DNA of 64,000 bases from Rhynochetos jubatus. Lineage: Eukaryota; Chordata; Aves; Eurypygiformes; Rhynochetidae. The stretch is taken from positions 1,311,273-1,375,272 of the forward strand of contig CM050677.1 in assembly GCA_027574665.1 (NCBI GenBank), read 5' to 3'. The translations under genes and the position numbers were made by a program. The notes beneath the pieces are model-generated. The model was given only the letters and a program-made list of their open reading frames with translations. It did no database searches and was not told the origin of the DNA. Positions 1-55,977 of this stretch are shown here, piece by piece; within the stretch, counting starts at the first letter, position 1; every line of letters starts with the position of its first letter.

Positions 1-93
1 GAGCAGGGGCAGGTCCTCACCGAGTCCAGCCAGACCGACCTGGGCTTGGGAGGAAGCCCTGAGGGCCGCTTCTTTCCTGGGGCTCCACTGTGA
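1..93 (+). CDS. FOXJ1-like: FOXJ1-like copy 0, 3' end only (cut by window edge)
   Basis: The last 30 codons and stop of a further copy upstream, in the frame of exon B (begins [10 protein letters not shown], ends PGAPL then TGA at 91-93). As in all other copies, the FOXJ1-type tail continues past this stop in the +1 frame to a TGA at 191-193. It shows that the array extends beyond the left edge. Confidence 0.9.
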   Translation, partial: EQGQVLTESSQTDLGLGGSPEGRFFPGAPL

Positions 94-2403
94 TGAAGGG
101 ACAAAGCTCGATGTCCTCAGCGTGGATCTGTTGGAGAACGTCCCTTTGCCCCTGGATTGGAATGACTGGAGCAGTGTGGCAGCCCTCTTCTGAGAGGCCT
201 GTCAGCATTTGAAAGCCCACGCAGGCTCCTTTTTAGGGGGGTGGGGTGTCCCGAGGCCAGCAAGCAAGGGCCATGTCTCTGGGGGGGGCTTTGGGGATAG
301 ATAGGTGATGTTGAAAGAGGTTTGTTATAAATCTTTGTGGTTGTAAATCTTGATCACTTGGTTGTCCTCTGTTTTTCTGGTTTGGGGCCTCTGTGTGGAG
401 GCTGAAATAGGGCAGAGATGCACGTGCCATTGCACCTTTGCCAGGGAAAGTTATCTCTAAGTTTTGACAAAGCAAGAAACGGTCCGTTTGCCTCCTTCTT
501 TCCCTCCAGCGCTGCCCGTCTGTGTCTGACGCCCTCCCCTGTGGGTAGGGGACATCTCACCAGCCCAGCCCCGGTCCGTGGGTGCTACCCACCCCCGTGC
601 GCGGCGGCACGGCAATTCCCCGAGGGGAAACCGAGGCGCAAAGCACCGCCTGCATGGCGATGGTTAGCCAGCAGCTGTGCGGCACGAGGGTGGCCCAGTG
701 TCCTGGGAGCTGCTGCCAACGCCTGGCGCATCCTTCCTACGAGGAGCTCCTGGGGGTGATGACAGGCCGTTGGGCAGGGTCATTGCTCACCCGCGGGGGC
801 CAGGCAGAACCCCCCGGCACCCCCAGCGTCGTCCCTTTGGGCCTTTTGTGGGACTTGATTGAATCGTTCCCTCTTGGGGCTTGTCTAGGGGTTTTGCGCC
901 CGCTTTTCCAGAAGCTCCCTCCTCTCCCGTGAGCTTTGCAAGTTGGGGGTCGTCGCCGGGACGAGGTAAGGGACGGCCGGACAGCCGCGGTGGCAGAAAG
1001 CGGCGGGGGGAGGGGCGCTGCCGAGGGAGGGCTCAGCCGGGCGGCCCGTGCAAAGCCGGCTGTCAGGAGCGGGAGGTTTGCCCGGGGGAGGGCTCGGTTT
1101 TGTTCTTGGAGCTTTCTTCTCTAGGCGCAGTTTCATCTTTACTGATTGCATCGGGACTTTTGTCCGTTGGAGGCCCCCCCCCCGCTCCCCACTCGCTGCA
1201 CCCGGCGTTCCTGGGATGGGATCCTCGTTCCCTGCCAGCACAGGAGCTGGCCCGGCTGGGGGGTGACACTGGGGAGCAGGCACCTGAACGCGGCTGTGGC
1301 TGCCCCCAGCCTTGTTTTGGGGGCAAAAAGCCTGTGCTGCGGGAGCGGGGCGGGTAGTCCCGCCGCGCCGCGCTCGCGCCGCGCTCATGCCCGGCCGGGG
1401 CCGGCAGCCGCGTTCAAAGGCTGCAGCCGCGGAGCTCGGCGCCGGCGCTTGCCGGGGCCGGGCCGGGGCCGGGGCCGGGCCGCGCGCACCCGGTTGCGCT
1501 CGCGGGCGCCGCGAGCCCTGGGCTGCCGGTTGGACGGTTGGCGGCGCGAGGCCACAGCTAACGGAAGCTGGACTCCGCCGGCCGGCGCTGAGGGAGCGTG
1601 TGCTTGCGCTGGGTCCGCTGGTCGCCGAGAACCGTTTGAGGGATAGCAGCAGAGTGACCGCCAGGTAAGTGGGGAGCGGGCAGGGGCGGGGGCGTGTGGA
1701 GCTGGAAATTTTGCTCTGCCGGAGACATCCCTGAGCTGGAAATTTTGCTCTGCCGGAGACATCCCTGCGTTGTGAGACAGCGGGGCTGGATTGGGAGCGG
1801 CGGGGGTGGGGGGCGCGGAGGTGTGCGGTTTTTTTTTTCTTCTTTCTGACTCTCTTTCTCCGGCCGCAGGCTGGCCGGGCAGCGCCGGGGTTGTGGGAGC
1901 GGTGGGGGGGGGGGGGGGGGGGCGGCGGGGGGGTGGGGCGCGGAGGTGTGCGGGGTTTTTTTTCTTCTTTCTGTGTCTTTCTCCGGCCGCAGGCTTGCCG
2001 GGCAGCGCCGGAGTTGTGGGAGCAGCGGGGGGGCGGATGGGGGGCGGCCGCGGAGGTGTCCTTTTTTTTTTCTTCTTTGTGTCTCTCTTCCTCCGGCCGC
2101 AGGCTGGCCGAGCAGCGTCGGGGTTGGGGTGAGAGCGGGCCACGGGGGTGCTTACCCGAGGTTCGGGACTGCTAAGGCCCCCCCCTTGCCAGGGGAGACG
2201 TGGCGGCCCTGGTGCACAGCACCCCGGCGACGGGTCTCCCTCGGCGGCGCCGGGAGCAGGCAGTGCCGGCCCTGCCCACGTGCCGCAGGGTGGCTGCGCC
2301 TTGGGGAGCCTCAAAGCCCCTCGATGCTCTTCTTGCAGGCTCTGCCCCACCCTGTCCCTCCCTGTGCACCCTGTCAGCGCAAGAGCAGCTGAAGGCCCAA
2401 GGC
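94..2403 (+). promoter_or_regulatory. Spacer and 5' region of copy 1 (3-module type)
   Basis: This is the reference description for all spacers. The +1-frame C-tail of the preceding gene ends at 193. TATAAA at 326-331, followed by T/GT-rich DNA, is the best poly(A)-signal candidate; I see no AATAAA. From about 360 to 1,300 I see no gene; a donor-like GAG|GTAAGG at 966 could end an alternative upstream exon. The CpG island spans about 930-1,680, with a GC box GGGGCGGG at 1347-1354 and a G-quadruplex-prone GGGGCC-type tract at 1454-1479; no convincing TATA box is seen. Exon 1 ends at 1664 in CAG|GTAAGT. Intron 1 holds a 34 bp direct duplication (1699-1732 and 1733-1766), three T-tract/acceptor modules with AG at 1869, 1992 and 2102, and a G-run at about 1905-1922. 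The acceptor for coding exon A is TTCTTGCAG ending at 2338. The transcription start is not determined. Confidence 0.7.
1829..2128 (+). repeat. Triplicated polypyrimidine/splice-acceptor module, copy 1
   Basis: Three tandem modules, each a T8-T10 tract, TTCTT(T), a CTCTTTCTC-like stretch and CGGCCGCAG|GC, with AG ends at 1869, 1992 and 2102 (spacing 123 and 110 bp). Each would be a strong 3' splice site. The last is followed 26 bp later by a donor-like GGG|GTGAGA (GT at 2129-2130), so 2103-2128 could be a very small noncoding exon. Modules 1 and 2 are followed by G-runs with no clear donor. Use of these sites is inference. Confidence 0.6.
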
Positions 2404-4411
<2,008 letters not shown>

Positions 4412-4543
4412 GAGGCCTGTCAGCATTTGAAAGCCCACGCAGGCTCCTTTTTAGGGGGGTGGGGTGTCCCGAGGCCAGCAAGCAAGGGCCATGTCTCTGG
4501 GGGGGGCTTTGGGGATAGATAGGTGATGTTGAAAGAGGTTTGT

Positions 4544-4549
4544 TATAAA
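4544..4549 (+). terminator. Candidate poly(A) signal TATAAA, copy 1
   Basis: TATAAA, a known minor variant of AATAAA, lies 235 bp past the first base of the stop codon and is followed by TTTGTGGTTGT and a CTGTTTTTCTGG stretch that could be the downstream element. Equivalent sites start at 326, 8793, 12950, 17202, 21438, 25606, 29816, 33900, 37984, 42068, 46268, 50352 and 54551. Confidence 0.45.
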
Positions 4550-6619
4550 TCTTTGTGGTTGTAAATCTTGATCACTTGGTTGTCCTCTGTTTTTCTGGTT
4601 TGGGGCCTCTGTGTGGAGGCTGAAATAGGGCAGAGATGCACGTGCCATTGCACCTTTGCCAGGGAAAGTTATCTCTAAGTTTTGACAAAGCAAGAAACGG
4701 TCCGTTTGCCTCCTTCTTTCCCTCCAGCGCTGCCCGTCTGTGTCTGACGCCCTCCCCTGTGGGTAGGGGACATCTCACCAGCCCAGCCCCGGTCCGTGGG
4801 TGCTACCCACCCCCGTGCGCGGCGGCACGGCAATTCCCCGAGGGGAAACCGAGGCGCAAAGCACCGCCTGCATGGCGATGGTTAGCCAGCAGCTGTGCGG
4901 CACGAGGGTGGCCCAGTGTCCTGGGAGCTGCTGCCAACGCCTGGCGCATCCTTCCTACGAGGAGCTCCTGGGGGTGATGACAGGCCGTTGGGCAGGGTCA
5001 TTGCTCACCCGCGGGGGCCAGGCAGAACCCCCCGGCACCCCCAGCGTCGTCCCTTTGGGCCTTTTGTGGGACTTGATTGAATCGTTCCCTCTTGGGGCTT
5101 GTCTAGGGGTTTTGCGCCCGCTTTTCCAGAAGCTCCCTCCTCTCCCGTGAGCTTTGCAAGTTGGGGGTCGTCGCCGGGACGAGGTAAGGGACGGCCGGAC
5201 AGCCGCGGTGGCAGAAAGCGGCGGGGGGAGGGGCGCTGCCGAGGGAGGGCTCAGCCGGGCGGCCCGTGCAAAGCCGGCTGTCAGGAGCGGGAGGTTTGCC
5301 CGGGGGAGGGCTCGGTTTTGTTCTTGGAGCTTTCTTCTCTAGGCGCAGTTTCATCTTTACTGATTGCATCGGGACTTTTGTCCGTTGGAGGCCCCCCCCC
5401 CGCTCCCCGCTCGCTGCACCCGGCGTTCCTGGGATGGGATCCTCGTTCCCTGCCAGCACAGGAGCTGGCCCGGCTGGGGGGTGACACTGGGGAGCAGGCA
5501 CCTGAACGCGGCTGTGGCTGCCCCCAGCCTTGTTTTGGGGGCAAAAAGCCTGTGCTGCGGGAGCGGGGCGGGTAGTCCCGCCGCGCCGCGCTCGCGCCGC
5601 GCTCATGCCCGGCCGGGGCCGGCAGCCGCGTTCAAAGGCTGCAGCCGCGGAGCTCGGCGCCGGCGCTTGCCGGGGCCGGGCCGGGGCCGGGGCCGGGCCG
5701 CGCGCACCCGGTTGCGCTCGCGGGCGCCGCGAGCCCTGGGCTGCCGGTTGGACGGTTGGCGGCGCGAGGCCACAGCTAACGGAAGCTGGACTCCGCCGGC
5801 CGGCGCTGAGGGAGCGTGTGCTTGCGCTGGGTCCGCTGGTCGCCGAGAACCGTTTGAGGGGTAGCAGCAGAGTGACCGCCAGGTAAGTGGGGAGCGGGCA
5901 GGGGCGGGGGCGTGTGGAGCTGGAAATTTTGCTCTGCCGGAGACATCCCTGAGCTGGAAATTTTGCTCTGCCGGAGACATCCCTGCGTTGTGAGACAGCG
6001 GGGCTGGATTGGGAGCGGCGGGGGTGGGGGGCGCGGAGGTGTGCGGTTTTTTTTTTCTTCTTTCTGACTCTCTTTCTCCAGCCGCAGGCTGGCCGGGCAG
6101 CGCCGGGGCTGTGGGAGCGGGGGGGGGGGGGGGGGGGCGGCGGGGGTGTGGGGCGCGGAGGTGTGCGGGGTTTTTTTTCTTCTTTCTGTGTCTTTCTCCG
6201 GCCGCAGGCTTGCCGGGCAGCGCCGGAGTTGTGGGAGCAGCGGGGGGGCGGATGGGGGGCGGCCGCGGAGGTGTCCTTTTTTTTTTTCTTCTTTGTGTCT
6301 CTCTTCCTCCGGCCGCAGGCTGGCCGAGCAGCGTCGGGGTTGGGGTGAGAGCGGGCCACGGGGGTGCTTACCCGAGGTTCGGGACTGCTAAGGCCCCCCC
6401 CTTGCCAGGGGAGACGTGGCGGCCCTGGTGCACAGCACCCCGGCGACGGGTCTCCCTCGGCGGCGCCGGGAGCAGGCAGTGCCGGCCCTGCCCACGTGCC
6501 GCAGGGTGGCTGCGCCTTGGGGAGCCTCAAAGCCCCTCGATGCTCTTCTTGCAGGCTCTGCCCCACCCTGTCCCTCCCTGTGCACCCTGTCAGCGCAAGA
6601 GCAGCTGAAGGCCCAAGGC

Positions 6620-8560
<1,941 letters not shown>

Positions 8561-10872
8561 CGAAGGGACAAAGCTCGATGTCCTCAGCGTGGATCTGTTG
8601 GAGAACGTCCCTTTGCCCCTGGATTGGAATGACTGGAGCAGTGTGGCAGCCCTCTTCTGAGAGGCCTGTCAGCATTTGAAAGCCCACGCAGGCTCCTTTT
8701 TAGGGGAGTGGGGTGTCCCGAGGCCAGCAAGCAAGGGCCATGTCTCTGGGGGGGGCTTTGGGGATAGATAGGTGATGTTGAAAGAGGTTTGTTATAAATC
8801 TTTGTGGTTGTAAATCTTGATCACTTGGTTGTCCTCTGTTTTTCTGGTTTGGGGCCTCTGTGTGGAGGCTGAAATAGGGCAGAGATGCACGTGCCATTGC
8901 ACCTTTGCCAGGGAAAGTTATCTCTAAGTTTTGACAAAGCAAGAAACGGTCCGTTTGCCTCCTTCTTTCCCTCCAGCGCTGCCCGTCTGTGTCTGACGCC
9001 CTCCCCTGTGGGTAGGGGACATCTCACCAGCCCAGCCCCGGTCCGTGGGTGCTACCCACCCCCGTGCGCGGCGGCACGGCAATTCCCCGAGGGGAAACCG
9101 AGGCGCAAAGCACCGCCTGCATGGCGATGGTTAGCCAGCAGCTGTGCGGCACGAGGGTGGCCCAGTGTCCTGGGAGCTGCTGCCAACGCCTGGCGCATCC
9201 TTCCTACGAGGAGCTCCTGGGGGTGATGACAGGCCGTTGGGCAGGGTCATTGCTCACCCGCGGGGGCCAGGCAGAACCCCCCGGCACCCCCAGCGTCGTC
9301 CCTTTGGGCCTTTTGTGGGACTTGATTGAATCGTTCCCTCTTGGGGCTTGTCTAGGGGTTTTGCGCCCGCTTTTCCAGAAGCTCCCTCCTCTCCCGTGAG
9401 CTTTGCAAGTTGGGGGTCGTCGCCGGGACGAGGTAAGGGACGGCCGGACAGCCGCGGTGGCAGAAAGCGGCGGGGGGAGGGGCGCTGCCGAGGGAGGGCT
9501 CAGCCGGGCGGCCCGTGCAAAGCCGGCTGTCAGGAGCGGGAGGTTTGCCCGGGGGAGGGCTCGGTTTTGTTCTTGGAGCTTTCTTCTCTAGGCGCAGTTT
9601 CATCTTTACTGATTGCATCGGGACTTTTGTCCGTTGGAGGCCCCCCCCCGCTCCCCGCTCGCTGCACCCGGCGTTCCTGGGATGGGATCCTCGTTCCCTG
9701 CCAGCACAGGAGCTGGCCCGGCTGGGGGGTGACACTGGGGAGCAGGCACCTGAACGCGGCTGTGGCTGCCCCCAGCCTTGTTTTGGGGGCAAAAAGCCTG
9801 TGCTGCGGGAGCGGGGCGGGTAGTCCCGCCGCGCCGCGCTCGCGCCGCGCTCATGCCCGGCCGGGGCCGGCAGCCGCGTTCAAAGGCTGCAGCCGCGGAG
9901 CTCGGCGCCGGCGCTTGCCGGGGCCGGGCCGGGGCCGGGGCCGGGCCGCGCGCACCCGGTTGCGCTCGCGGGCGCCGCGAGCCCTGGGCTGCCGGTTGGA
10001 CGGTTGGCGGCGCGAGGCCACAGCTAACGGAAGCTGGACTCCGCCGGCCGGCGCTGAGGGAGCGTGTGCTTGCGCTGGGTCCGCTGGTCGCCGAGAACCG
10101 TTTGAGGGGTAGCAGCAGAGTGACCGCCAGGTAAGTGGGGAGCGGGCAGGGGCGGGGGCGTGTGGAGCTGGAAATTTTGCTCTGCCGGAGACATCCCTGA
10201 GCTGGAAATTTTGCTCTGCCGGAGACATCCCTGCGTTGTGAGACAGCGGGGCTGGATTGGGAGCGGCGGGGGTGGGGGGCGCGGAGGTGTGCGGTTTTTT
10301 TTTTCTTCTTTCTGACTCTCTTTCTCCAGCCGCAGGCTGGCCGGGCAGCGCCGGGGTTGTGGGAGCGGGGGGGGGGGGGGGGTGGGGGGGGCGGCGGGGG
10401 TGTGGGGCGCGGAGGTGTGCGGGGTTTTTTTTCTTCTTTCTGTGTCTTTCTCCGGCCGCAGGCTTGCCGGGCAGCGCCGGAGTTGTGGGAGCAGCGGGGG
10501 GGCGGATGGGGGGCGGCCGCGGAGGTGTCCTTTTTTTTTTCTTCTTTGTGTCTCTCTTCCTCCGGCCGCAGGCTGGCCGAGCAGCGTCGGGGTTGGGGTG
10601 AGAGCGGGCCACGGGGGTGCTTACCCGAGGTTCGGGACTGCTAAGGCCCCCCCCTTGCCAGGGGAGACGTGGCGGCCCTGGTGCACAGCACCCCGGCGAC
10701 GGGTCTCCCTCGGCGGCGCCGGGAGCAGGCAGTGCCGGCCCTGCCCACGTGCCGCAGGGTGGCTGCGCCTTGGGGAGCCTCAAAGCCCCTCGATGCTCTT
10801 CTTGCAGGCTCTGCCCCACCCTGTCCCTCCCTGTGCACCCTGTCAGCGCAAGAGCAGCTGAAGGCCCAAGGC
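8561..10872 (+). promoter_or_regulatory. Spacer and 5' region of copy 3 (3-module type)
   Basis: Exon 1 donor after 10130; exon A acceptor ends at 10807. The G-run after module 1 is interrupted by a T (about 10367-10390). Private GGGGAGTGG for GGGGGGTGG near 8703. Confidence 0.65.
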
Positions 10873-12717
<1,845 letters not shown>

Positions 12718-15028
12718 TGAAGGGACAAAGCTCAATGTCCTCAGCGTGGATCTGTTGGAGAACGTCCCTTTGCCCCTGGATTGGAATGACTGGAGCAGTG
12801 TGGCAGCCCTCTTCTGAGAGGCCTGTCAGCATTTGAAAGCCCACGCAGGCTCCTTTTTAGGGGGGTGGGGTGTCCCGAGGCCAGCAAGCAAGGGCCATGT
12901 CTCTGGGGGGGGCTTTGGGGATAGATAGGTGATGTTGAAAGAGGTTTGTTATAAATCTTTGTGGTTGTAAATCTTGATCACTTGGTTGTCCTCTGTTTTT
13001 CTGGTTTGGGGCCTCTGTGTGGAGGCTGAAATAGGGCAGAGATGCACGTGCCATTGCACCTTTGCCAGGGAAAGTTATCTCTAAGTTTTGACAAAGCAAG
13101 AAACGGTCCGTTTGCCTCCTTCTTTCCCTCCAGCGCTGCCCGTCTGTGTCTGACGCCCTCCCCTGTGGGTAGGGGACATCTCACCAGCCCAGCCCCGGTC
13201 CGTGGGTGCTACCCACCCCCGTGCGCGGCGGCACGGCAATTCCCCGAGGGGAAACCGAGGCGCAAAGCACCGCCTGCATGGCGATGGTTAGCCAGCAGCT
13301 GTGCGGCACGAGGGTGGCCCAGTGTCCTGGGAGCTGCTGCCAACGCCTGGCGCATCCTTCCTACGAGGAGCTCCTGGGGGTGATGACAGGCCGTTGGGCA
13401 GGGTCATTGCTCACCCGCGGGGGCCAGGCAGAACCCCCCGGCACCCCCAGCGTCGTCCCTTTGGGCCTTTTGTGGGACTTGATTGAATCGTTCCCTCTTG
13501 GGGCTTGTCTAGGGGTTTTGCGCCCGCTTTTCCAGAAGCTCCCTCCTCTCCCGTGAGCTTTGCAAGTTGGGGGTCGTCGCCGGGACGAGGTAAGGGACGG
13601 CCGGACAGCCGCGGTGGCAGAAAGCGGCGGGGGGAGGGGCGCTGCCGAGGGAGGGCTCAGCCGGGCGGCCCGTGCAAAGCCGGCTGTCAGGAGCGGGAGG
13701 TTTGCCCGGGGGAGGGCTCGGTTTTGTTCTTGGAGCTTTCTTCTCTAGGCGCAGTTTCATCTTTACTGATTGCATCGGGACTTTTGTCCGTTGGAGGCCC
13801 CCCCCCCGCTCCCCACTCGCTGCACCCGGCGTTCCTGGGATGGGATCCTCGTTCCCTGCCAGCACAGGAGCTGGCCCGGCTGGGGGGTGACACTGGGGAG
13901 CAGGCACCTGAACGCGGCTGTGGCTGCCCCCAGCCTTGTTTTGGGGGCAAAAAGCCTGTGCTGCGGGAGCGGGGCGGGTAGTCCCGCCGCGCCGCGCTCG
14001 CGCCGCGCTCATGCCCGGCCGGGGCCGGCAGCCGCGTTCAAAGGCTGCAGCCGCGGAGCTCGGCGCCGGCGCTTGCCGGGGCCGGGCCGGGGCCGGGGCC
14101 GGGCCGCGCGCACCCGGTTGCGCTCGCGGGCGCCGCGAGCCCTGGGCTGCCGGTTGGACGGTTGGCGGCGCGAGGCCACAGCTAACGGAAGCTGGACTCC
14201 GCCGGCCGGCGCTGAGGGAGCGTGTGCTTGCGCTGGGTCCGCTGGTCGCCGAGAACCGTTTGAGGGATAGCAGCAGAGTGACCGCCAGGTAAGTGGGGAG
14301 CGGGCAGGGGCGGGGGCGTGTGGAGCTGGAAATTTTGCTCTGCCGGAGACATCCCTGAGCTGGAAATTTTGCTCTGCCGGAGACATCCCTGCGTTGTGAG
14401 ACAGCGGGGCTGGATTGGGAGCGGCGGGGGTGGGGGGCGCGGAGGTGTGCGGTTTTTTTTTTCTTCTTTCTGACTCTCTTTCTCCGGCCGCAGGCTGGCC
14501 GGGCAGCGCCGGGGTTGTGGGAGCGGTGGGGGGGGGGGGGGGGGGGGCGGCGGGGGGGTGGGGCGCGGAGGTGTGCGGGGTTTTTTTTCTTCTTTCTGTG
14601 TCTTTCTCCGGCCGCAGGCTTGCCGGGCAGCGCCGGAGTTGTGGGAGCAGCGGGGGGGCGGATGGGGGGCGGCCGCGGAGGTGTCCTTTTTTTTTTCTTC
14701 TTTGTGTCTCTCTTCCTCCGGCCGCAGGCTGGCCGAGCAGCGTCGGGGTTGGGGTGAGAGCGGGCCACGGGGGTGCTTACCCGAGGTTCGGGACTGCTAA
14801 GGCCCCCCCCTTGCCAGGGGAGACGTGGCGGCCCTGGTGCACAGCACCCCGGCGACGGGTCTCCCTCGGCGGCGCCGGGAGCAGGCAGTGCCGGCCCTGC
14901 CCACGTGCCGCAGGGTGGCTGCGCCTTGGGGAGCCTCAAAGCCCCTCGATGCTCTTCTTGCAGGCTCTGCCCCACCCTGTCCCTCCCTGTGCACCCTGTC
15001 AGCGCAAGAGCAGCTGAAGGCCCAAGGC
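12718..15028 (+). promoter_or_regulatory. Spacer and 5' region of copy 4 (3-module type)
   Basis: Exon 1 donor after 14288; exon A acceptor ends at 14963. It shares two variants only with the copy 1 spacer: GAGGGATAGC near the end of exon 1 and CCCCACTCGC upstream. The two promoters therefore have recent common ancestry although copies 2 and 3 lie between them. Confidence 0.65.
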
Positions 15029-16969
<1,941 letters not shown>

Positions 16970-19276: not shown

Positions 19277-21205
<1,929 letters not shown>

Positions 21206-23390: not shown

Positions 23391-25373
<1,983 letters not shown>

Positions 25374-27684: not shown

Positions 27685-29583
<1,899 letters not shown>

Positions 29584-31768: not shown

Positions 31769-33667
<1,899 letters not shown>

Positions 33668-35852: not shown

Positions 35853-37751
<1,899 letters not shown>

Positions 37752-39936
37752 TGAAGGGACAAAGCTCGATGTCCTCAGCGTGGATCTGTTGGAGAACGTC
37801 CCTTTGCCCCTGGATTGGAATGACTGGAGCAGTGTGGCAGCCCTCTTCTGAGAGGCCTGTCAGCATTTGAAAGCCCACGCAGGCTCCTTTTTAGGGGGGT
37901 GGGGTGTCCCGAGGCCAGCAAGCAAGGGCCATGTCTCTGGGGGGGGCTTTGGGGATAGATAGGTGATGTTGAAAGAGGTTTGTTATAAATCTTTGTGGTT
38001 GTAAATCTTGATCACTTGGTTGTCCTCTGTTTTTCTGGTTTGGGGCCTCTGTGTGGAGGCTGAAATAGGGCAGAGATGCACGTGCCATTGCACCTTTGCC
38101 AGGGAAAGTTATCTCTAAGTTTTGACAAAGCAAGAAACGGTCCGTTTGCCTCCTTCTTTCCCTCCAGCGCTGCCCGTCTGTGTCTGACGCCCTCCCCTGT
38201 GGGTAGGGGACATCTCACCAGCCCAGCCCCGGTCCGTGGGTGCTACCCACCCCCGTGCGCGGCGGCACGGCAATTCCCCGAGGGGAAACCGAGGCGCAAA
38301 GCACCGCCTGCATGGCGATGGTTAGCCAGCAGCTGTGCGGCACGAGGGTGGCCCAGTGTCCTGGGAGCTGCTGCCAACGCCTGGCGCATCCTTCCTACGA
38401 GGAGCTCCTGGGGGTGATGACAGGCCGTTGGGCAGGGTCATTGCTCACCCGCGGGGGCCAGGCAGAACCCCCCGGCACCCCCAGCGTCGTCCCTTTGGGC
38501 CTTTTGTGGGACTTGATTGAATCGTTCCCTCTTGGGGCTTGTCTAGGGGTTTTGCGCCCGCTTTTCCAGAAGCTCCCTCCTCTCCCGTGAGCTTTGCAAG
38601 TTGGGGGTCGTCGCCGGGACGAGGTAAGGGACGGCCGGACAGCCGCGGTGGCAGAAAGCGGCGGGGGGAGGGGCGCTGCCGAGGGAGGGCTCAGCCGGGC
38701 GGCCCGTGCAAAGCCGGCTGTCAGGAGCGGGAGGTTTGCCCGGGGGAGGGCTCGGTTTTGTTCTTGGAGCTTTCTTCTCTAGGCGCAGTTTCATCTTTAC
38801 TGATTGCATCGGGACTTTTGTCCGTTGGAGGCCCCCCCCCGCTCCCCGCTCGCTGCACCCGGCGTTCCTGGGATGGGATCCTCGTTCCCTGCCAGCACAG
38901 GAGCTGGCCCGGCTGGGGGGTGACACTGGGGAGCAGGCACCTGAACGCGGCTGTGGCTGCCCCCAGCCTTGTTTTGGGGGCAAAAAGCCTGTGCTGCGGG
39001 AGCGGGGCGGGTAGTCCCGCCGCGCCGCGCTCGCGCCGCGCTCATGCCCGGCCGGGGCCGGCAGCCGCGTTCAAAGGCTGCAGCCGCGGAGCTCGGCGCC
39101 GGCGCTTGCCGGGGCCGGGCCGGGGCCGGGGCCGGGCCGCGCGCACCCGGTTGCGCTCGCGGGCGCCGCGAGCCCTGGGCTGCCGGTTGGACGGTTGGCG
39201 GCGCGAGGCCACAGCTAACGGAAGCTGGACTCCGCCGGCCGGCGCTGAGGGAGCGTGTGCTTGCGCTGGGTCCGCTGGTCGCCGAGAACCGTTTGAGGGG
39301 TAGCAGCAGAGTGACCGCCAGGTAAGTGGGGAGCGGGCAGGGGCGGGGGCGTGTGGAGCTGGAAATTTTGCTCTGCCGGAGACATCCCTGAGCTGGAAAT
39401 TTTGCTCTGCCGGAGACATCCCTGCGTTGTGAGACAGCGGGGCTGGATTGGGAGCGGCGGGGGGGTGGGGCGCGGAGGTGTGCGGGGTTTTTTTTCTTCT
39501 TTCTGTGTCTTTCTCCGGCCGCAGGCTTGCCGGGCAGCGCCGGAGTTGTGGGAGCAGCGGGGGGGCGGATGGGGGGCGGCCGCGGAGGTGTCCTTTTTTT
39601 TTTTCTTCTTTGTGTCTCTCTTCCTCCGGCCGCAGGCTGGCCGAGCAGCGTCGGGGTTGGGGTGAGAGCGGGCCACGGGGGTGCTTACCCGAGGTTCGGG
39701 ACTGCTAAGGCCCCCCCCTTGCCAGGGGAGACGTGGCGGCCCTGGTGCACAGCACCCCGGCGACGGGTCTCCCTCGGCGGCGCCGGGAGCAGGCAGTGCC
39801 GGCCCTGCCCACGTGCCGCAGGGTGGCTGCGCCTTGGGGAGCCTCAAAGCCCCTCGATGCTCTTCTTGCAGGCTCTGCCCCACCCTGTCCCTCCCTGTGC
39901 ACCCTGTCAGCGCAAGAGCAGCTGAAGGCCCAAGGC
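37752..39936 (+). promoter_or_regulatory. Spacer and 5' region of copy 10 (2-module type)
   Basis: Exon 1 donor after 39321; exon A acceptor ends at 39871. Same type as the spacers of copies 8 and 9. Confidence 0.65.
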
Positions 39937-41835
<1,899 letters not shown>

Positions 41836-44148
41836 TGAAGGGACAAAGCTCGATGTCCTCAGCGTGGATCTGTTGGAGAACGTCCCTTTGCCCCTGGATT
41901 GGAATGACTGGAGCAGTGTGGCAGCCCTCTTCTGAGAGGCCTGTCAGCATTTGAAAGCCCACGCAGGCTCCTTTTTAGGGGGGTGGGGTGTCCCGAGGCC
42001 AGCAAGCAAGGGCCATGTCTCTGGGGGGGGCTTTGGGGATAGATAGGTGATGTTGAAAGAGGTTTGTTATAAATCTTTGTGGTTGTAAATCTTGATCACT
42101 TGGTTGTCCTCTGTTTTTCTGGTTTGGGGCCTCTGTGTGGAGGCTGAAATAGGGCAGAGATGCACGTGCCATTGCACCTTTGCCAGGGAAAGTTATCTCT
42201 AAGTTTTGACAAAGCAAGAAACGGTCCGTTTGCCTCCTTCTTTCCCTCCAGCGCTGCCCGTCTGTGTCTGACGCCCTCCCCTGTGGGTAGGGGACATCTC
42301 ACCAGCCCAGCCCCGGTCCGTGGGTGCTACCCACCCCCGTGCGCGGCGGCACGGCAATTCCCCGAGGGGAAACCGAGGCGCAAAGCACCGCCTGCATGGC
42401 GATGGTTAGCCAGCAGCTGTGCGGCACGAGGGTGGCCCAGTGTCCTGGGAGCTGCTGCCAACGCCTGGCGCATCCTTCCTACGAGGAGCTCCTGGGGGTG
42501 ATGACAGGCCGTTGGGCAGGGTCATTGCTCACCCGCGGGGGCCAGGCAGAACCCCCCGGCACCCCCAGCGTCGTCCCTTTGGGCCTTTTGTGGGACTTGA
42601 TTGAATCGTTCCCTCTTGGGGCTTGTCTAGGGGTTTTGCGCCCGCTTTTCCAGAAGCTCCCTCCTCTCCCGTGAGCTTCGCAAGTTGGGGGTCGTCGCCG
42701 GGACGAGGTAAGGGACGGCCGGACAGCCGCGGTGGCAGAAAGCGGCGGGGGGAGGGGCGCTGCCGAGGGAGGGCTCAGCCGGGCGGCCCGTGCAAAGCCG
42801 GCTGTCAGGAGCGGGAGGTTTGCCCGGGGGAGGGCTCGGTTTTGTTCTTGGAGCTTTCTTCTCTAGGCGCAGTTTCATCTTTACTGATTGCATCGGGACT
42901 TTTGTCCGTTGGAGGCCCCCCCCCGCTCCCCGCTCGCTGCACCCGGCGTTCCTGGGATGGGATCCTCGTTCCCTGCCAGCACAGGAGCTGGCCCGGCTGG
43001 GGGGTGACACTGGGGAGCAGGCACCTGAACGCGGCTGTGGCTGCCCCCAGCCTTGTTTTGGGGGCAAAAAGCCTGTGCTGCGGGAGCGGGGCGGGTAGTC
43101 CCGCCGCGCCGCGCTCGCGCCGCGCTCATGCCCGGCCGGGGCCGGCAGCCGCGTTCAAAGGCTGCAGCCGCGGAGCTCGGCGCCGGCGCTTGCCGGGGCC
43201 GGGCCGGGGCCGGGGCCGGGCCGCGCGCACCCGGTTGCGCTCGCGGGCGCCGCGAGCCCTGGGCTGCCGGTTGGACGGTTGGCGGCGCGAGGCCACAGCT
43301 AACGGAAGCTGGACTCCGCCGGCCGGCGCTGAGGGAGCGTGTGCTTGCGCTGGGTCCGCTGGTCGCCGAGAACCGTTTGAGGGGTAGCAGCAGAGTGACC
43401 GCCAGGTAAGTGGGGAGCGGGCAGGGGCGGGGGCGTGTGGAGCTGGAAATTTTGCTCTGCCGGAGACATCCCTGAGCTGGAAATTTTGCTCTGCCGGAGA
43501 CATCCCTGCGTTGTGAGACAGCGGGGCTGGATTGGGAGCGGCGGGGGTGGGGGGCGCGGAGGTGTGCGGTTTTTTTTTTCTTCTTTCTGACTCTCTTTCT
43601 CCAGCCGCAGGCTGGCCGGGCAGCGCCGGGGCTGTGGGAGCGGGGGGGGGGGGGGGGGGGGGGGGCGGCGGGGGGTGTGGGGCGCGGAGGTGTGCGGGGT
43701 TTTTTTTCTTCTTTCTGTGTCTTTCTCCGGCCGCAGGCTTGCCGGGCAGCGCCGGAGTTGTGGGAGCAGCGGGGGGGCGGATGGGGGGCGGCCGCGGAGG
43801 TGTCCTTTTTTTTTTTCTTCTTTGTGTCTCTCTTCCTCCGGCCGCAGGCTGGCCGAGCAGCGTCGGGGTTGGGGTGAGAGCGGGCCACGGGGGTGCTTAC
43901 CCGAGGTTCGGGACTGCTAAGGCCCCCCCCTTGCCAGGGGAGACGTGGCGGCCCTGGTGCACAGCACCCCGGCGACGGGTCTCCCTCGGCGGCGCCGGGA
44001 GCAGGCAGTGCCGGCCCTGCCCACGTGCCGCAGGGTGGCTGCGCCTTGGGGAGCCTCAAAGCCCCTCGATGCTCTTCTTGCAGGCTCTGCCCCACCCTGT
44101 CCCTCCCTGTGCACCCTGTCAGCGCAAGAGCAGCTGAAGGCCCAAGGC
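41836..44148 (+). promoter_or_regulatory. Spacer and 5' region of copy 11 (3-module type)
   Basis: Exon 1 donor after 43405; exon A acceptor ends at 44083. It has GAGCTTCGCAAG for GAGCTTTGCAAG near 42674, a CTCCAGCCGCAG module 1 and a G-run of over 20 (about 43640-43665). The T-to-C change recurs in the copy 13 spacer, supporting an 8.28 kb dimer repeat. Confidence 0.66.
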
Positions 44149-46035
<1,887 letters not shown>

Positions 46036-48220
46036 TGAAGGGACAAAGCTCGATGTCCTCAGCGTGGATCTGTTGGAGAACGTCCCTTTGCCCCTGGATT
46101 GGAATGACTGGAGCAGTGTGGCAGCCCTCTTCTGAGAGGCCTGTCAGCATTTGAAAGCCCACGCAGGCTCCTTTTTAGGGGGGTGGGGTGTCCCGAGGCC
46201 AGCAAGCAAGGGCCATGTCTCTGGGGGGGGCTTTGGGGATAGATAGGTGATGTTGAAAGAGGTTTGTTATAAATCTTTGTGGTTGTAAATCTTGATCACT
46301 TGGTTGTCCTCTGTTTTTCTGGTTTGGGGCCTCTGTGTGGAGGCTGAAATAGGGCAGAGATGCACGTGCCATTGCACCTTTGCCAGGGAAAGTTATCTCT
46401 AAGTTTTGACAAAGCAAGAAACGGTCCGTTTGCCTCCTTCTTTCCCTCCAGCGCTGCCCGTCTGTGTCTGACGCCCTCCCCTGTGGGTAGGGGACATCTC
46501 ACCAGCCCAGCCCCGGTCCGTGGGTGCTACCCACCCCCGTGCGCGGCGGCACGGCAATTCCCCGAGGGGAAACCGAGGCGCAAAGCACCGCCTGCATGGC
46601 GATGGTTAGCCAGCAGCTGTGCGGCACGAGGGTGGCCCAGTGTCCTGGGAGCTGCTGCCAACGCCTGGCGCATCCTTCCTACGAGGAGCTCCTGGGGGTG
46701 ATGACAGGCCGTTGGGCAGGGTCATTGCTCACCCGCGGGGGCCAGGCAGAACCCCCCGGCACCCCCAGCGTCGTCCCTTTGGGCCTTTTGTGGGACTTGA
46801 TTGAATCGTTCCCTCTTGGGGCTTGTCTAGGGGTTTTGCGCCCGCTTTTCCAGAAGCTCCCTCCTCTCCCGTGAGCTTTGCAAGTTGGGGGTCGTCGCCG
46901 GGACGAGGTAAGGGACGGCCGGACAGCCGCGGTGGCAGAAAGCGGCGGGGGGAGGGGCGCTGCCGAGGGAGGGCTCAGCCGGGCGGCCCGTGCAAAGCCG
47001 GCTGTCAGGAGCGGGAGGTTTGCCCGGGGGAGGGCTCGGTTTTGTTCTTGGAGCTTTCTTCTCTAGGCGCAGTTTCATCTTTACTGATTGCATCGGGACT
47101 TTTGTCCGTTGGAGGCCCCCCCCCGCTCCCCGCTCGCTGCACCCGGCGTTCCTGGGATGGGATCCTCGTTCCCTGCCAGCACAGGAGCTGGCCCGGCTGG
47201 GGGGTGACACTGGGGAGCAGGCACCTGAACGCGGCTGTGGCTGCCCCCAGCCTTGTTTTGGGGGCAAAAAGCCTGTGCTGCGGGAGCGGGGCGGGTAGTC
47301 CCGCCGCGCCGCGCTCGCGCCGCGCTCATGCCCGGCCGGGGCCGGCAGCCGCGTTCAAAGGCTGCAGCCGCGGAGCTCGGCGCCGGCGCTTGCCGGGGCC
47401 GGGCCGGGGCCGGGGCCGGGCCGCGCGCACCCGGTTGCGCTCGCGGGCGCCGCGAGCCCTGGGCTGCCGGTTGGACGGTTGGCGGCGCGAGGCCACAGCT
47501 AACGGAAGCTGGACTCCGCCGGCCGGCGCTGAGGGAGCGTGTGCTTGCGCTGGGTCCGCTGGTCGCCGAGAACCGTTTGAGGGGTAGCAGCAGAGTGACC
47601 GCCAGGTAAGTGGGGAGCGGGCAGGGGCGGGGGCGTGTGGAGCTGGAAATTTTGCTCTGCCGGAGACATCCCTGAGCTGGAAATTTTGCTCTGCCGGAGA
47701 CATCCCTGCGTTGTGAGACAGCGGGGCTGGATTGGGAGCGGCGGGGGGGTGGGGCGCGGAGGTGTGCGGGGTTTTTTTTCTTCTTTCTGTGTCTTTCTCC
47801 GGCCGCAGGCTTGCCGGGCAGCGCCGGAGTTGTGGGAGCAGCGGGGGGGCGGATGGGGGGCGGCCGCGGAGGTGTCCTTTTTTTTTTTCTTCTTTGTGTC
47901 TCTCTTCCTCCGGCCGCAGGCTGGCCGAGCAGCGTCGGGGTTGGGGTGAGAGCGGGCCACGGGGGTGCTTACCCGAGGTTCGGGACTGCTAAGGCCCCCC
48001 CCTTGCCAGGGGAGACGTGGCGGCCCTGGTGCACAGCACCCCGGCGACGGGTCTCCCTCGGCGGCGCCGGGAGCAGGCAGTGCCGGCCCTGCCCACGTGC
48101 CGCAGGGTGGCTGCGCCTTGGGGAGCCTCAAAGCCCCTCGATGCTCTTCTTGCAGGCTCTGCCCCACCCTGTCCCTCCCTGTGCACCCTGTCAGCGCAAG
48201 AGCAGCTGAAGGCCCAAGGC
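46036..48220 (+). promoter_or_regulatory. Spacer and 5' region of copy 12 (2-module type)
   Basis: Exon 1 donor after 47605; exon A acceptor ends at 48155. Same 2,185 bp form as the spacers of copies 6 and 8-10. Confidence 0.65.
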
Positions 48221-50119
<1,899 letters not shown>

Positions 50120-52431
50120 TGAAGGGACAAAGCTCGATGTCCTCAGCGTGGATCTGTTGGAGAACGTCCCTTTGCCCCTGGATTGGAATGACTGGAGCAG
50201 TGTGGCAGCCCTCTTCTGAGAGGCCTGTCAGCATTTGAAAGCCCACGCAGGCTCCTTTTTAGGGGGGTGGGGTGTCCCGAGGCCAGCAAGCAAGGGCCAT
50301 GTCTCTGGGGGGGGCTTTGGGGATAGATAGGTGATGTTGAAAGAGGTTTGTTATAAATCTTTGTGGTTGTAAATCTTGATCACTTGGTTGTCCTCTGTTT
50401 TTCTGGTTTGGGGCCTCTGTGTGGAGGCTGAAATAGGGCAGAGATGCACGTGCCATTGCACCTTTGCCAGGGAAAGTTATCTCTAAGTTTTGACAAAGCA
50501 AGAAACGGTCCGTTTGCCTCCTTCTTTCCCTCCAGCGCTGCCCGTCTGTGTCTGACGCCCTCCCCTGTGGGTAGGGGACATCTCACCAGCCCAGCCCCGG
50601 TCCGTGGGTGCTACCCACCCCCGTGCGCGGCGGCACGGCAATTCCCCGAGGGGAAACCGAGGCGCAAAGCACCGCCTGCATGGCGATGGTTAGCCAGCAG
50701 CTGTGCGGCACGAGGGTGGCCCAGTGTCCTGGGAGCTGCTGCCAACGCCTGGCGCATCCTTCCTACGAGGAGCTCCTGGGGGTGATGACAGGCCGTTGGG
50801 CAGGGTCATTGCTCACCCGCGGGGGCCAGGCAGAACCCCCCGGCACCCCCAGCGTCGTCCCTTTGGGCCTTTTGTGGGACTTGATTGAATCGTTCCCTCT
50901 TGGGGCTTGTCTAGGGGTTTTGCGCCCGCTTTTCCAGAAGCTCCCTCCTCTCCCGTGAGCTTCGCAAGTTGGGGGTCGTCGCCGGGACGAGGTAAGGGAC
51001 GGCCGGACAGCCGCGGTGGCAGAAAGCGGCGGGGGGAGGGGCGCTGCCGAGGGAGGGCTCAGCCGGGCGGCCCGTGCAAAGCCGGCTGTCAGGAGCGGGA
51101 GGTTTGCCCGGGGGAGGGCTCGGTTTTGTTCTTGGAGCTTTCTTCTCTAGGCGCAGTTTCATCTTTACTGATTGCATCGGGACTTTTGTCCGTTGGAGGC
51201 CCCCCCCCGCTCCCCGCTCGCTGCACCCGGCGTTCCTGGGATGGGATCCTCGTTCCCTGCCAGCACAGGAGCTGGCCCGGCTGGGGGGTGACACTGGGGA
51301 GCAGGCACCTGAACGCGGCTGTGGCTGCCCCCAGCCTTGTTTTGGGGGCAAAAAGCCTGTGCTGCGGGAGCGGGGCGGGTAGTCCCGCCGCGCCGCGCTC
51401 GCGCCGCGCTCATGCCCGGCCGGGGCCGGCAGCCGCGTTCAAAGGCTGCAGCCGCGGAGCTCGGCGCCGGCGCTTGCCGGGGCCGGGCCGGGGCCGGGGC
51501 CGGGCCGCGCGCACCCGGTTGCGCTCGCGGGCGCCGCGAGCCCTGGGCTGCCGGTTGGACGGTTGGCGGCGCGAGGCCACAGCTAACGGAAGCTGGACTC
51601 CGCCGGCCGGCGCTGAGGGAGCGTGTGCTTGCGCTGGGTCCGCTGGTCGCCGAGAACCGTTTGAGGGGTAGCAGCAGAGTGACCGCCAGGTAAGTGGGGA
51701 GCGGGCAGGGGCGGGGGCGTGTGGAGCTGGAAATTTTGCTCTGCCGGAGACATCCCTGAGCTGGAAATTTTGCTCTGCCGGAGACATCCCTGCGTTGTGA
51801 GACAGCGGGGCTGGATTGGGAGCGGCGGGGGTGGGGGGCGCGGAGGTGTGCGGTTTTTTTTTTCTTCTTTCTGACTCTCTTTCTCCAGCCGCAGGCTGGC
51901 CGGGCAGCGCCGGGGCTGTGGGAGCGGGGGGGGGGGGGGGGGGGGGGGCGGCGGGGGGTGTGGGGCGCGGAGGTGTGCGGGGTTTTTTTTCTTCTTTCTG
52001 TGTCTTTCTCCGGCCGCAGGCTTGCCGGGCAGCGCCGGAGTTGTGGGAGCAGCGGGGGGGCGGATGGGGGGCGGCCGCGGAGGTGTCCTTTTTTTTTTTC
52101 TTCTTTGTGTCTCTCTTCCTCCGGCCGCAGGCTGGCCGAGCAGCGTCGGGGTTGGGGTGAGAGCGGGCCACGGGGGTGCTTACCCGAGGTTCGGGACTGC
52201 TAAGGCCCCCCCCTTGCCAGGGGAGACGTGGCGGCCCTGGTGCACAGCACCCCGGCGACGGGTCTCCCTCGGCGGCGCCGGGAGCAGGCAGTGCCGGCCC
52301 TGCCCACGTGCCGCAGGGTGGCTGCGCCTTGGGGAGCCTCAAAGCCCCTCGATGCTCTTCTTGCAGGCTCTGCCCCACCCTGTCCCTCCCTGTGCACCCT
52401 GTCAGCGCAAGAGCAGCTGAAGGCCCAAGGC
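50120..52431 (+). promoter_or_regulatory. Spacer and 5' region of copy 13 (3-module type)
   Basis: Exon 1 donor after 51689; exon A acceptor ends at 52366. It matches the copy 11 spacer including GAGCTTCGCAAG (near 50958) and the CTCCAGCCGCAG module; the G-run (about 51925-51948) differs slightly in length. Confidence 0.66.
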
Positions 52432-54318
<1,887 letters not shown>

Positions 54319-55647
54319 TGAAGGGACAAAGCTCGATGTCCTCAGCGTGGATCTGTTGGAGAACGTCCCTTTGCCCCTGGATTGGAATGACTGGAGCAGT
54401 GTGGCAGCCCTCTTCTGAGAGGCCTGTCAGCATTTGAAAGCCCACGCAGGCTCCTTTTTAGGGGGGTGGGGTGTCCCGAGGCCAGCAAGCAAGGGCCATG
54501 TCTCTGGGGGGGGCTTTGGGGATAGATAGGTGATGTTGAAAGAGGTTTGTTATAAATCTTTGTGGTTGTAAATCTTGATCACTTGGTTGTCCTCTGTTTT
54601 TCTGGTTTGGGGCCTCTGTGTGGAGGCTGAAATAGGGCAGAGATGCACGTGCCATTGCACCTTTGCCAGGGAAAGTTATCTCTAAGTTTTGACAAAGCAA
54701 GAAACGGTCCGTTTGCCTCCTTCTTTCCCTCCAGCGCTGCCCGTCTGTGTCTGACGCCCTCCCCTGTGGGTAGGGGACATCTCACCAGCCCAGCCCCGGT
54801 CCGTGGGTGCTACCCACCCCCGTGCGCGGCGGCACGGCAATTCCCCGAGGGGAAACCGAGGCGCAAAGCACCGCCTGCATGGCGATGGTTAGCCAGCAGC
54901 TGTGCGGCATGAGGGTGGCCCAGTGTCCTGGGAGCTGCTGCCAACGCCTGGCGCATCCTTCCTACGAGGAGCTCCTGGGGGTGATGACAGGCCGTTGGGC
55001 AGGGTCATTGCTCACCCGCGGGGGCCAGGCAGAACCCCCCGGCACCCCCAGCGTCGTCCCTTTGGGCCTTTTGTGGGACTTGATTGAATCGTTCCCTCTT
55101 GGGGCTTGTCTAGGGGTTTTGCGCCCGCTTTTCCAGAAGCTCCCTCCTCTCCCGTGAGCTTTGCAAGTTGGGGGTCGTCGCCGGGACGAGGTAAGGGACG
55201 GCCGGACAGCCGCGGTGGCAGAAAGCGGCGGGGGGAGGGGCGCTGCCGAGGGAGGGCTCAGCCGGGCGGCCCGTGCAAAGCCGGCTGTCAGGAGCGGGAG
55301 GTTTGCCCGGGGGAGGGCTCGGTTTTGTTCTTGGAGCTTTCTTCTCTAGGCGCAGTTTCATCTTTACTGATTGCATCGGGACTTTTGTCCGTTGGAGGCC
55401 CCCCCCCCGCTCCCCGCTCGCTGCACCCGGCGTTCCTGGGATGGGATCCTCGTTCCCTGCCAGCACAGGAGCTGGCCCGGCTGGGGGGTGACACTGGGGA
55501 GCAGGCACCTGAACGCTGCTGTGGCTGCCCCCAGCCTTGTTTTGGGGGCAAAAAGCCTGTGCTGCGGGAGCGGGACGGGTAGTCCCGCCGCGCCGCGCTC
55601 GCGCCGCGCTCATGCCCGGCCGGGGCCGGCAGCCGCGTTCAAAGGCT
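54319..55647 (+). promoter_or_regulatory. Truncated fourteenth unit: 3' region, spacer and partial CpG promoter
   Basis: It continues like the other spacers (tail stop 54418, TATAAA at 54551, spacer, CpG island) but ends abruptly at 55647 inside GTTCAAAGGCT, before the GGGGCC tract and exon 1. It carries several private substitutions, including CGGCATGAG for CGGCACGAG (near 54909), GAACGCTGC for GAACGCGGC and GAGCGGGACGGG for GAGCGGGGCGGG. These suggest that the edge unit escapes homogenisation. No gene lies downstream for it to drive. Confidence 0.8.
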
Positions 55648-55648
55648 C
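55647..55648. other. Junction between FOXJ1-like array and satellite
   Basis: Left of the junction the sequence matches the gene unit through AAAGGCT; right of it the sequence matches the satellite from CTAAAGCAGCAC. The T at 55647 fits both, so the overlap is 1 bp. There is no transposon end or target-site duplication at the join, which fits end joining or illegitimate recombination. Confidence 0.85.
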
Positions 55649-55968: not shown

Positions 55969-55977
55969 TGTTTGTTT
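55969..55977 (+). promoter_or_regulatory. TGTTTGTTT forkhead-like core in satellite (first of about 18)
   Basis: TGTTTGTTT occurs once in each third-type segment and resembles the HFH-4/FOXJ1 consensus, whose core is TGTTTGTTTA. In every monomer an inverted AAACAAAC lies about 65 bp upstream (for example 57592-57599 against 57657-57664). One copy, near 62650, is mutated to TGTTTGTAT. Binding is unproven; a T-rich 9-mer can arise by chance and then spread with the monomer. Confidence 0.3.

What the first reader, a model, noticed from the sequence alone, without database searches (positions are those of the whole stretch)
1..55647. Multicopy tandem amplification of a FOXJ1-like ciliogenesis regulator
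FOXJ1 is normally single-copy (or one of few paralogues) in vertebrates. Here at least 13 full genes, each with its own CpG promoter and intron, sit head to tail with near identity. The protein is clearly FOXJ1-type: N-terminal WL-DF motif, KPPYSY...FRHANATWQ / NSVRHNLS forkhead, QIHPA, TPPGSP. Forkhead contact residues are kept while linkers diverge. A multicopy regulator of cilia and sperm flagella suggests testis expression, dosage selection or a sex-linked/ampliconic role.
Basis: partly seen in the sequence, partly recalled or inferred. Interest (0 to 1): 0.85.

Follow-up and report, generated by a model that had tools for sequence, protein, structure and literature searches.

The report
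FOXJ1-derived macrosatellite on many chromosome arms
A gene derived from the master switch for motile cilia (FOXJ1) has been copied more than 160 times into near-identical tandem arrays at the same spot on about 18 chromosome arms of what looks like a bird genome; most copies can still encode a DNA-binding protein, but one that has lost its normal tail, and they look more like a repeat passenger than a tuned gene family.

Summary
In detail: 13 complete and 2 partial head-to-tail units (4.07-4.29 kb, 99.7-100% identical) fill 1-55647, then a 472-bp satellite begins. The interpretation needs changing. In the window's own genome the same left junction lies at 18 places on 17 contigs (at least 164 units), at the inner edge of a roughly 0.5-Mb chromosome-end block that carries a rootletin-like gene; a marker in that block is 98-100% identical at 25 places. 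Eight further arms have the block with one listed FOXJ1-like 3' fragment. The true FOXJ1 lies on C22 beside an Exo70 gene, with an intact tail. The array founder gained one base that replaced the conserved tail; three fragments read keep the old frame. Against C22, dN/dS is 0.61 (0.42-0.96). Among present copies nonsynonymous changes are not depleted (16:4), CpG decay reaches the promoter (suggesting germline methylation), and 4 of 13 window copies are truncated. Best reading: a FOXJ1-derived macrosatellite, like D4Z4/DUX4 and chicken pericentromeric amplicons, homogenised by exchange between arms. Expression, possibly testicular, is untested. Dosage selection and sex linkage are not supported.

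The parts
1..2403 (+). partial unit: end of exon 3 of a preceding copy (1-93), 3' region, CpG promoter, non-coding exon 1 (donor GT at 1665), intron 1, exon 2 from 2339 up to the ATG of copy 1
2404..4311 (+). FOXJ1-like copy 1: exon 2 CDS 2404-2892, exon 3 3499-4311, 433 aa
6620..8560 (+). FOXJ1-like copy 2: 6620-7108, 7727-8560, 440 aa
10873..12432 (+). FOXJ1-like copy 3: 10873-11361, 11968-12432, 317 aa (early TAG)
15029..16684 (+). FOXJ1-like copy 4: 15029-15517, 16136-16684, 345 aa (early TAG)
19277..21205 (+). FOXJ1-like copy 5: 19277-19765, 20372-21205, 440 aa
23391..25373 (+). FOXJ1-like copy 6: 23391-23879, 24498-25373, 454 aa
27685..29298 (+). FOXJ1-like copy 7: 27685-28173, 28792-29298, 331 aa (early TAG)
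31769..33667 (+). FOXJ1-like copy 8: 31769-32257, 32876-33667, 426 aa
35853..37751 (+). FOXJ1-like copy 9: 35853-36341, 36960-37751, 426 aa
39937..41835 (+). FOXJ1-like copy 10: 39937-40425, 41044-41835, 426 aa
44149..46035 (+). FOXJ1-like copy 11: 44149-44637, 45244-46035, 426 aa
48221..50119 (+). FOXJ1-like copy 12: 48221-48709, 49328-50119, 426 aa
52432..54033 (+). FOXJ1-like copy 13: 52432-52920, 53527-54033, 331 aa (early TAG)
53922..54045 (+). in-frame 21/42-bp exon-3 minisatellite (shown for copy 13; present in each of the 13 copies with varying length; carries the TAG in copies 3, 4, 7, 13)
54034..55647 (+). 3' end of copy 13 and truncated promoter region of a would-be next unit; array ends at 55647
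55648..64000 (.). satellite with 472-bp period; still present at probes C32:1.5, 2.0 and 2.4 Mb; presumed (peri)centromeric

Best explanation
The region is one copy of a dispersed macrosatellite whose unit is a whole duplicated FOXJ1 gene (promoter, non-coding exon 1, exon 2, forkhead-splitting intron, exon 3). One unit with a shifted C-terminal frame was amplified in tandem at the inner edge of a chromosome-end block of about 0.5 Mb, between a rootletin-like gene and a 472-bp satellite. The whole module is now on about 18 chromosome arms and is kept near-identical by exchange between arms (inferred from identity and shared breakpoints). The likely setting is the short arm of acrocentric chromosomes next to the centromere (inferred from order, size and the chicken precedent). 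The copies encode a forkhead DNA-binding protein without the normal FOXJ1 tail. Most are probably methylated in the germline and silent for much of the time, with occasional expression, perhaps in testis, as in D4Z4/DUX4 arrays and chicken pericentromeric amplicons. Shown: anatomy, dispersal, single-origin junctions, frame change, FOXJ1 elsewhere, CpG decay, no present constraint detected. Inferred: centromere identity, exchange mechanism, methylation, expression.
For: Left junction (1-kb query) matched full length at 99-100% at 18 places on 17 contigs; right junction spanned at 18 places, 15 of them full length; 17 places show both. At least 164 units from two lists capped at 150. Telomere-side flank 99.5-99.9% identical between 10 contigs. 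A marker 92-94 kb telomere-side is 98-100% identical at 25 places, a marker 242-244 kb telomere-side 99-100% at 21 places, each count including the query itself; one further 95% interstitial copy on C6 each. Rootletin-like exon beside 17 of the 18 left junctions, PF15035 E=4e-20. TTAGGG at the ends of C12 and C18 and the start of C130. Satellite at C12 probes 30.9, 30.7, 30.5 Mb and C14 probes 0.7, 1.0, 1.2 Mb, then other sequence. FOXJ1 with intact tail on C22, about 31 kb from Exo70 exons. Frame intact in C4, C6, C17 fragments, shifted in the array. CpG transitions 11/154 against 1/568 other C/G in coding sequence; 7/108 against 2/143 in the promoter. N:S 16:4 among copies; diversity of exons (0.0010-0.0013) not below that of intron 2 and 3' sequence (0.0005-0.0007).
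Against: dN/dS against C22 is 0.61 with the bootstrap interval below 1, so constraint acted on at least part of the joint history. Frames are mostly open: 134 of 149 array copies listed have exon-3 frames of 235-319 codons, and exon-3 lengths were multiples of three in all 26 copies examined; recency may explain this. Intron 2 shows no CpG excess (1/42 against 5/313), and the promoter excess is weak (p=0.04). Two cilia genes side by side, the rootletin-like one also in 14 tandem copies on C20, could point to function. Several 'ends' are contig ends not shown to be telomeres; C14:1-1000 and C49:1-500 read N. The second C32 array is not near a contig end.
Confidence: 0.7

Rival explanations
1. 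Selected dosage amplification: the array is a functional expansion of a ciliogenesis regulator, for example for sperm flagella.
For: Forkhead 85% identical to C22 and recognition-helix residues kept; most listed copies open; own promoters and splice sites 13 of 13; dN/dS below 1; rootletin-like neighbour and its tandem cluster on C20.
Against: Tail lost by frameshift; nine array-only against two C22-only forkhead replacements when polarised by recalled human FOXJ1; no depletion of nonsynonymous variants now; early-stop copies common on C32; CpG decay in promoter.
Confidence: 0.12
2. Truncated FOXJ1 antagonist or selfish testis amplicon: copies are expressed in the male germline and make a DNA-binding protein without the tail, competing with FOXJ1 or favouring their own spread.
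For: DNA-binding domain kept while the tail is replaced; chicken pericentromeric amplicons are testis-biased on 7 of 10 dot chromosomes (PMC9974502, section 9 read).
Against: No expression data here; CpG decay suggests methylation; no sign of constraint among copies.
Confidence: 0.12
3. Assembly artefact: one or few arrays mis-copied to many scaffolds or misjoined.
For: C32 holds the module twice, both block markers and the left junction at an offset of 2.479 Mb, which may be a tandem duplication or a misjoin; several small contigs (C49, C66, C130, C143, C146, and C148 of unseen length) carry arrays.
Against: Unit numbers and spacings differ between contigs; C49 units share a private amino-acid variant, 8 of 8 against 0 of 13 on C32; flanks differ by 0.1-0.5%; telomere repeats at the far end of the block on C12 and C18.
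Confidence: 0.06

Closest known systems
FOXJ1 (here the C22 gene beside an Exo70 gene)
   Same: Same exon layout with an intron splitting the forkhead, 78.6% aa identity over 388 codons, same exon-2 coding length (489 bp).
   Different: Array copies replace the last 49 residues by 16 others through a frameshift, have 9 array-only forkhead replacements, an expanded minisatellite and a shorter intron 2; more than 160 copies.
D4Z4/DUX4 macrosatellite (human; PMC12963445, passages seen)
   Same: Tandem transcription-factor gene units of a few kb, near-identical arrays on many chromosomes in subtelomeric or pericentromeric DNA; arrays outside 4q reported as consistently hypermethylated.
   Different: Forkhead gene split by introns, not a homeobox ORF in one exon (recalled); unrelated origin; expression and any disease role unknown here.
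Chicken pericentromeric testis-expressed amplicons and CenTe_5k (PMC9974502, section 9 read, passages seen)
   Same: Acrocentric chromosomes with gene amplicons in pericentromeric heterochromatin (an olfactory receptor with 386 intact copies; HINT1W in 52 tandem copies on W); a short-arm sequence conserved on 19 chromosomes.
   Different: Chicken amplicons served as chromosome-specific probes and the conserved short-arm sequence is 5 kb; here one amplicon and a block of about 0.5 Mb are shared by many arms. FOXJ1, forkhead, CROCC and rootletin do not occur in that paper's main text.
Interchromosomal subtelomeric duplications of birds (PMC13431229, passages seen)
   Same: Subtelomeric duplications in birds are biased to interchromosomal ones.
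   Different: No FOXJ1 or forkhead in that main text; a bias over many species, not this block or array.
Human acrocentric short arms (PMC12724521, PMC12767296; start of abstracts in the listing)
   Same: Repetitive short arms of non-homologous chromosomes with ectopic exchange.
   Different: About 25 arms here; no rDNA looked for.

Membership tests
FOXJ1 orthologue (ciliogenesis regulator) | FOXJ-type forkhead domain | tested here: met
   PF00250 E=1.4e-34; 85% aa identity to the C22 forkhead
FOXJ1 orthologue (ciliogenesis regulator) | conserved C-terminal tail | tested here: not met
   one extra base after SSQTDL shifts the frame; intact in C22 and in the C4, C6 and C17 fragments
FOXJ1 orthologue (ciliogenesis regulator) | syntenic position beside EXOC7 (recalled from human 17q25) | tested here: not met
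   the only Exo70 matches (2 of 3 candidates) lie by the C22 gene, not by the arrays
FOXJ1 orthologue (ciliogenesis regulator) | strong purifying selection | tested here: not met
   omega 0.61 against C22; N:S 16:4 among copies
FOXJ1 orthologue (ciliogenesis regulator) | expression in multiciliated cells and testis | not testable with these tools
   no RNA data held
Gene-bearing macrosatellite (D4Z4-like) | kb-scale tandem units, near-identical, variable number | tested here: met
   junction-to-junction spans from about 7 kb (C130) to 81 kb (C14),
Gene-bearing macrosatellite (D4Z4-like) | subtelomeric or pericentromeric, on several chromosomes | tested here: met
Gene-bearing macrosatellite (D4Z4-like) | DNA methylation and repression | tested here: inconclusive
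   indirect only: CpG transition excess in most regions, not in intron 2
Avian pericentromeric testis amplicon | array bordering centromeric heterochromatin | tested here: inconclusive
   472-bp satellite behind the array, reached by probes over about 0.6 Mb on C12 and C14; no CENP-A data
Avian pericentromeric testis amplicon | testis-biased expression | not testable with these tools
   no RNA data held
Sex-linked ampliconic gene | confined to a sex chromosome | tested here: not met
   left junction on 17 contigs, up to 126 Mb long

The most novel reading that the evidence does not exclude
About 25 chromosome arms of this genome behave as one recombining community of pseudo-homologous short arms, and a tail-less FOXJ1 with its rootletin-like neighbour rides on it as a germline-expressed amplicon that interferes with, or tunes, FOXJ1-driven flagellum formation and thereby promotes its own spread.
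Probability: 0.12. Interest if true: 0.88.

Novelty: new variant of a known kind. Interest (0 to 1): 0.62.

Why it matters
It is a case of a developmental master regulator turned into a dispersed macrosatellite, and a view of exchange between non-homologous chromosome arms in a probable bird that is far larger than the 5-kb conserved short-arm sequence described for chicken. It makes testable whether arm sharing, array copy number and spermatogenesis are linked, and it warns that FOXJ1 reads and annotations in such genomes mix one real gene with more than 160 near-identical relatives.

Tried and rejected
Retrocopy origin: rejected, introns and promoter are kept. Local or sex-confined amplification: rejected by dispersal. 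Array as the only FOXJ1: rejected, C22 gene found. A dead repeat with dN/dS of 1: not fully supported. Satellite as an array of the 41-bp repeat of chicken centromeres: autocorrelation peaked at 472, 129, 343 and 214 bp, not 41. PDB searches gave other forkheads only at the top and nothing useful for the rootletin exon. Papers: nine full-text searches showed no paper on FOXJ1 amplification in birds; five lists were complete (14 papers in all) and four showed only the top (40 of 549, 20 of 393, 15 of 65, 20 of 48). Beyond listings I saw passages of PMC13431229, PMC13320880, PMC9702581, PMC12963445 and PMC9974502, and read section 9 of the last. Most subscription papers are not held. PMC9702581 lists a 'foxj1.2' methylation site on an unplaced house sparrow scaffold, a lead only. 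No structure was predicted. The expected fraction uses mutation weights set by hand from the same data. The union count (165) includes one doubtful C130 pair, hence 'at least 164'. In one search one C21 exon-2 row was out of register in its first 33 bases, so that copy probably has a small indel there; those mismatches were not counted. The 26 exon-3 rows are those that held both of two fixed anchors; other partial copies were dropped.
Full report
OBSERVATION. The window holds 13 complete head-to-tail units of a forkhead gene on the + strand and a partial unit at each side. Units are 4072-4294 bp from ATG to ATG and 99.66-100% identical among 12 compared. Each has a CpG-rich promoter, a non-coding exon 1 with donor GTAAGT, exon 2 (489 coding bp), an intron that splits the forkhead domain after ATWQ, and exon 3. 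Pfam gives Forkhead, E=1.4e-34. Nine of 13 copies have the long frame (426-454 aa); four (copies 3, 4, 7, 13) stop at a TAG inside a 21/42-bp minisatellite of exon 3. The array ends at 55647, where a satellite with a 472-bp period begins. No AATAAA or ATTAAA lies in the one unit scanned.

THE ARRAY IS DISPERSED. The window's own genome is held (G000, 1.33 Gb, 148 contigs; the window is C32:1311273-1375272). Exon-2 and exon-3 queries, each capped at 150 scored matches, together mark 165 units, of which one C130 pair is doubtful. A 1-kb query over the left junction matches full length at 99-100% at 18 places on 17 contigs (C3, C12, C13, C14, C15, C18, C21, C24, C28, C30, C32 twice, C35, C49, C130, C143, C146, C148; 40 of 303 candidates scored). 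A query over the right junction is spanned at 18 places (the same list with C66 in place of C148; 15 full length, 3 to base 903-926; 40 of 2376 candidates scored). Seventeen places on 16 contigs show both, so both breakpoints look to be of single origin. Direct comparison of fetched flanks agrees: arrays start at unit position 1884 and end at 3237, counted from the ATG.

POSITION. On C12, C13, C14, C15, C18, C24, C28 and C30 the array lies about 0.48-0.53 Mb from a contig end, on C3 and C21 0.11 Mb and on C35 0.15 Mb; on these 11 contigs it points away from that end. The second C32 array lies mid-contig. The ends of C12 and C18 and the start of C130 are TTAGGG repeats. The telomere-side flank is 99.5-99.9% identical between 10 contigs over 3.1-9.8 kb. 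A 2-kb marker 92-94 kb telomere-side of the C14 array is 98-100% identical at 25 places on 24 contigs including itself, with one further 95% copy inside C6. A 2-kb marker 242-244 kb telomere-side is 99-100% identical at 21 places including itself, with the 95% C6 copy as the only other match (22 of 22 candidates); it is missing on C3, C21 and C35, whose contigs end nearer, and on C5. Behind the array the satellite is present at C14 probes 0.7, 1.0 and 1.2 Mb and C12 probes 30.9, 30.7 and 30.5 Mb, and absent at C14 1.4-3.0 Mb and C12 30.2 and 29.9 Mb; on C4 it is present at 0.6 and absent at 0.9 Mb. The order telomere, 0.5-Mb block, array, satellite, ordinary arm is what an acrocentric chromosome would show; chicken acrocentric centromeres are reported as 0.2-0.8 Mb (PMC9974502, passages). 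Centromere identity is inferred, not shown.

NEIGHBOUR. On the telomere side, reading the other way, lies a rootletin-like exon (PF15035, E=4e-20 for L012:886-1143). It occurs at 41 places: beside 17 of the 18 left junctions (the C143 contig starts short of it), at C4-C8, C17, C25 and C71, in a cluster of 14 on C20 (16.36-16.58 Mb, spacing about 16 kb), and two more distant ones (C20 17.95 Mb, C24 8.97 Mb).

ORIGIN. The best match to a recalled human FOXJ1 exon-3 stretch is not in an array but on C22 (84% against 75-77% for the array copies listed). This gene has the same exons and a 438-aa frame with an intact C-terminal tail, and Exo70-family exons, presumably EXOC7, lie about 31 kb away, which fits the FOXJ1 locus (synteny recalled from human). 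A recalled-motif pattern search had found nothing, as expected since C22 has Q for R in that motif. Array and C22 proteins share 78.6% identity over 388 codons. In the array the frame shifts just after SSQTDL, so the last 49 residues of the C22 protein are replaced by 16 others and a stop. Eight other arms (C4-C8, C17, C25, C71) carry a 99-100% copy of one FOXJ1-like 3' fragment (40 of 294 candidates scored) and gave no full left-junction match. On C4 and C6 the fragment runs straight into the satellite. In the three read (C4, C6, C17) the tail frame is intact and the array differs by one extra base. So the frame change most likely happened in the founder of the array, before amplification.

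SELECTION AND SILENCING. NG86 dN/dS of array against C22 is 0.61 without the minisatellite (368 codons; bootstrap 0.42-0.96; dN not below dS in 1.6% of 1000); forkhead 0.50, N-terminus 0.67. Polarised by recalled human FOXJ1, 9 of 94 forkhead positions changed only in the array and 2 only in C22. Within the window, exons (pi 0.0010-0.0013) are not less variable than intron 2 and 3' sequence (0.0005-0.0007). Among copies aligned to a mean depth of 31 the coding variants are 16 nonsynonymous and 4 synonymous, against an expected nonsynonymous fraction of 0.66 under a CpG-weighted neutral spectrum (p=0.24): no constraint detected, with low power. CpG transitions hit 11 of 154 CpG positions in coding sequence against 1 of 568 other C/G (Fisher 3e-7), 9 of 140 against 6 of 634 in 3' sequence, 10 of 92 against 5 of 284 in intron 1, and 7 of 108 against 2 of 143 in the promoter (p=0.04); intron 2 shows no excess (1 of 42 against 5 of 313). 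This suggests that the units, promoters included, are methylated in the germline. Of 149 array copies listed, 15 have the short frames 154, 168 or 182 (14 on C32, 1 on C12). Local homogenisation is visible too: a V-to-A variant is in 8 of 8 C49 units and 0 of 13 C32 units.

MECHANISM. A whole FOXJ1 duplicate came to lie beside a rootletin-like gene in a chromosome-end block. One copy with a shifted tail frame was amplified; the module is on many arms and is homogenised within and between them, most likely by ectopic exchange. The product keeps the recognition helix (NSVRHNLS aligns to NSIRHNLS of solved forkheads), so it could still bind DNA. The closest analogues are the human D4Z4/DUX4 arrays and the pericentromeric amplicons of chicken, which are testis-biased on 7 of 10 dot chromosomes. 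Expression here is untested.

VERDICT. Observation confirmed; interpretation partly supported. It is a new variant of a known kind: a dispersed transcription-factor macrosatellite on a shared chromosome-end block. Nine paper searches, four of them seen only in their top rows, showed no report of it.

Noticed in passing
C20:16364387-16575244 (own genome): Cluster of 14 rootletin-like exons at about 16-kb spacing, 93-94% identical to the exon beside the FOXJ1-like arrays: a second amplified cilia gene.
   Followed up: partly
C32:1046158-3843257 (own genome): Both block markers and the left junction occur twice on the window's contig at a constant offset of 2.479 Mb, and 14 of the 15 early-stop copies listed are on C32: tandem duplication or assembly join.
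   Followed up: partly
C6:44141955-44334306 (own genome): An interstitial copy of the two chromosome-end block markers at 95% identity, possibly an older source.
   Followed up: no
L030, L031 (ends of C12 and C18): A GC-rich repeat (unit length not measured) lies directly before the TTAGGG array; the two ends align at 89% over 524 bases.
   Followed up: no
C22:11228182-11232233 (L043, L047): The FOXJ1 gene itself has Q for the usual R in the FRHADPTWQ motif and G for D in the [10 protein letters not shown] motif (human form recalled).
   Followed up: partly
window 56273-64000: The satellite shows three stretches of 272-bp period between stretches of 471/472-bp period, a higher-order structure.
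   Followed up: no
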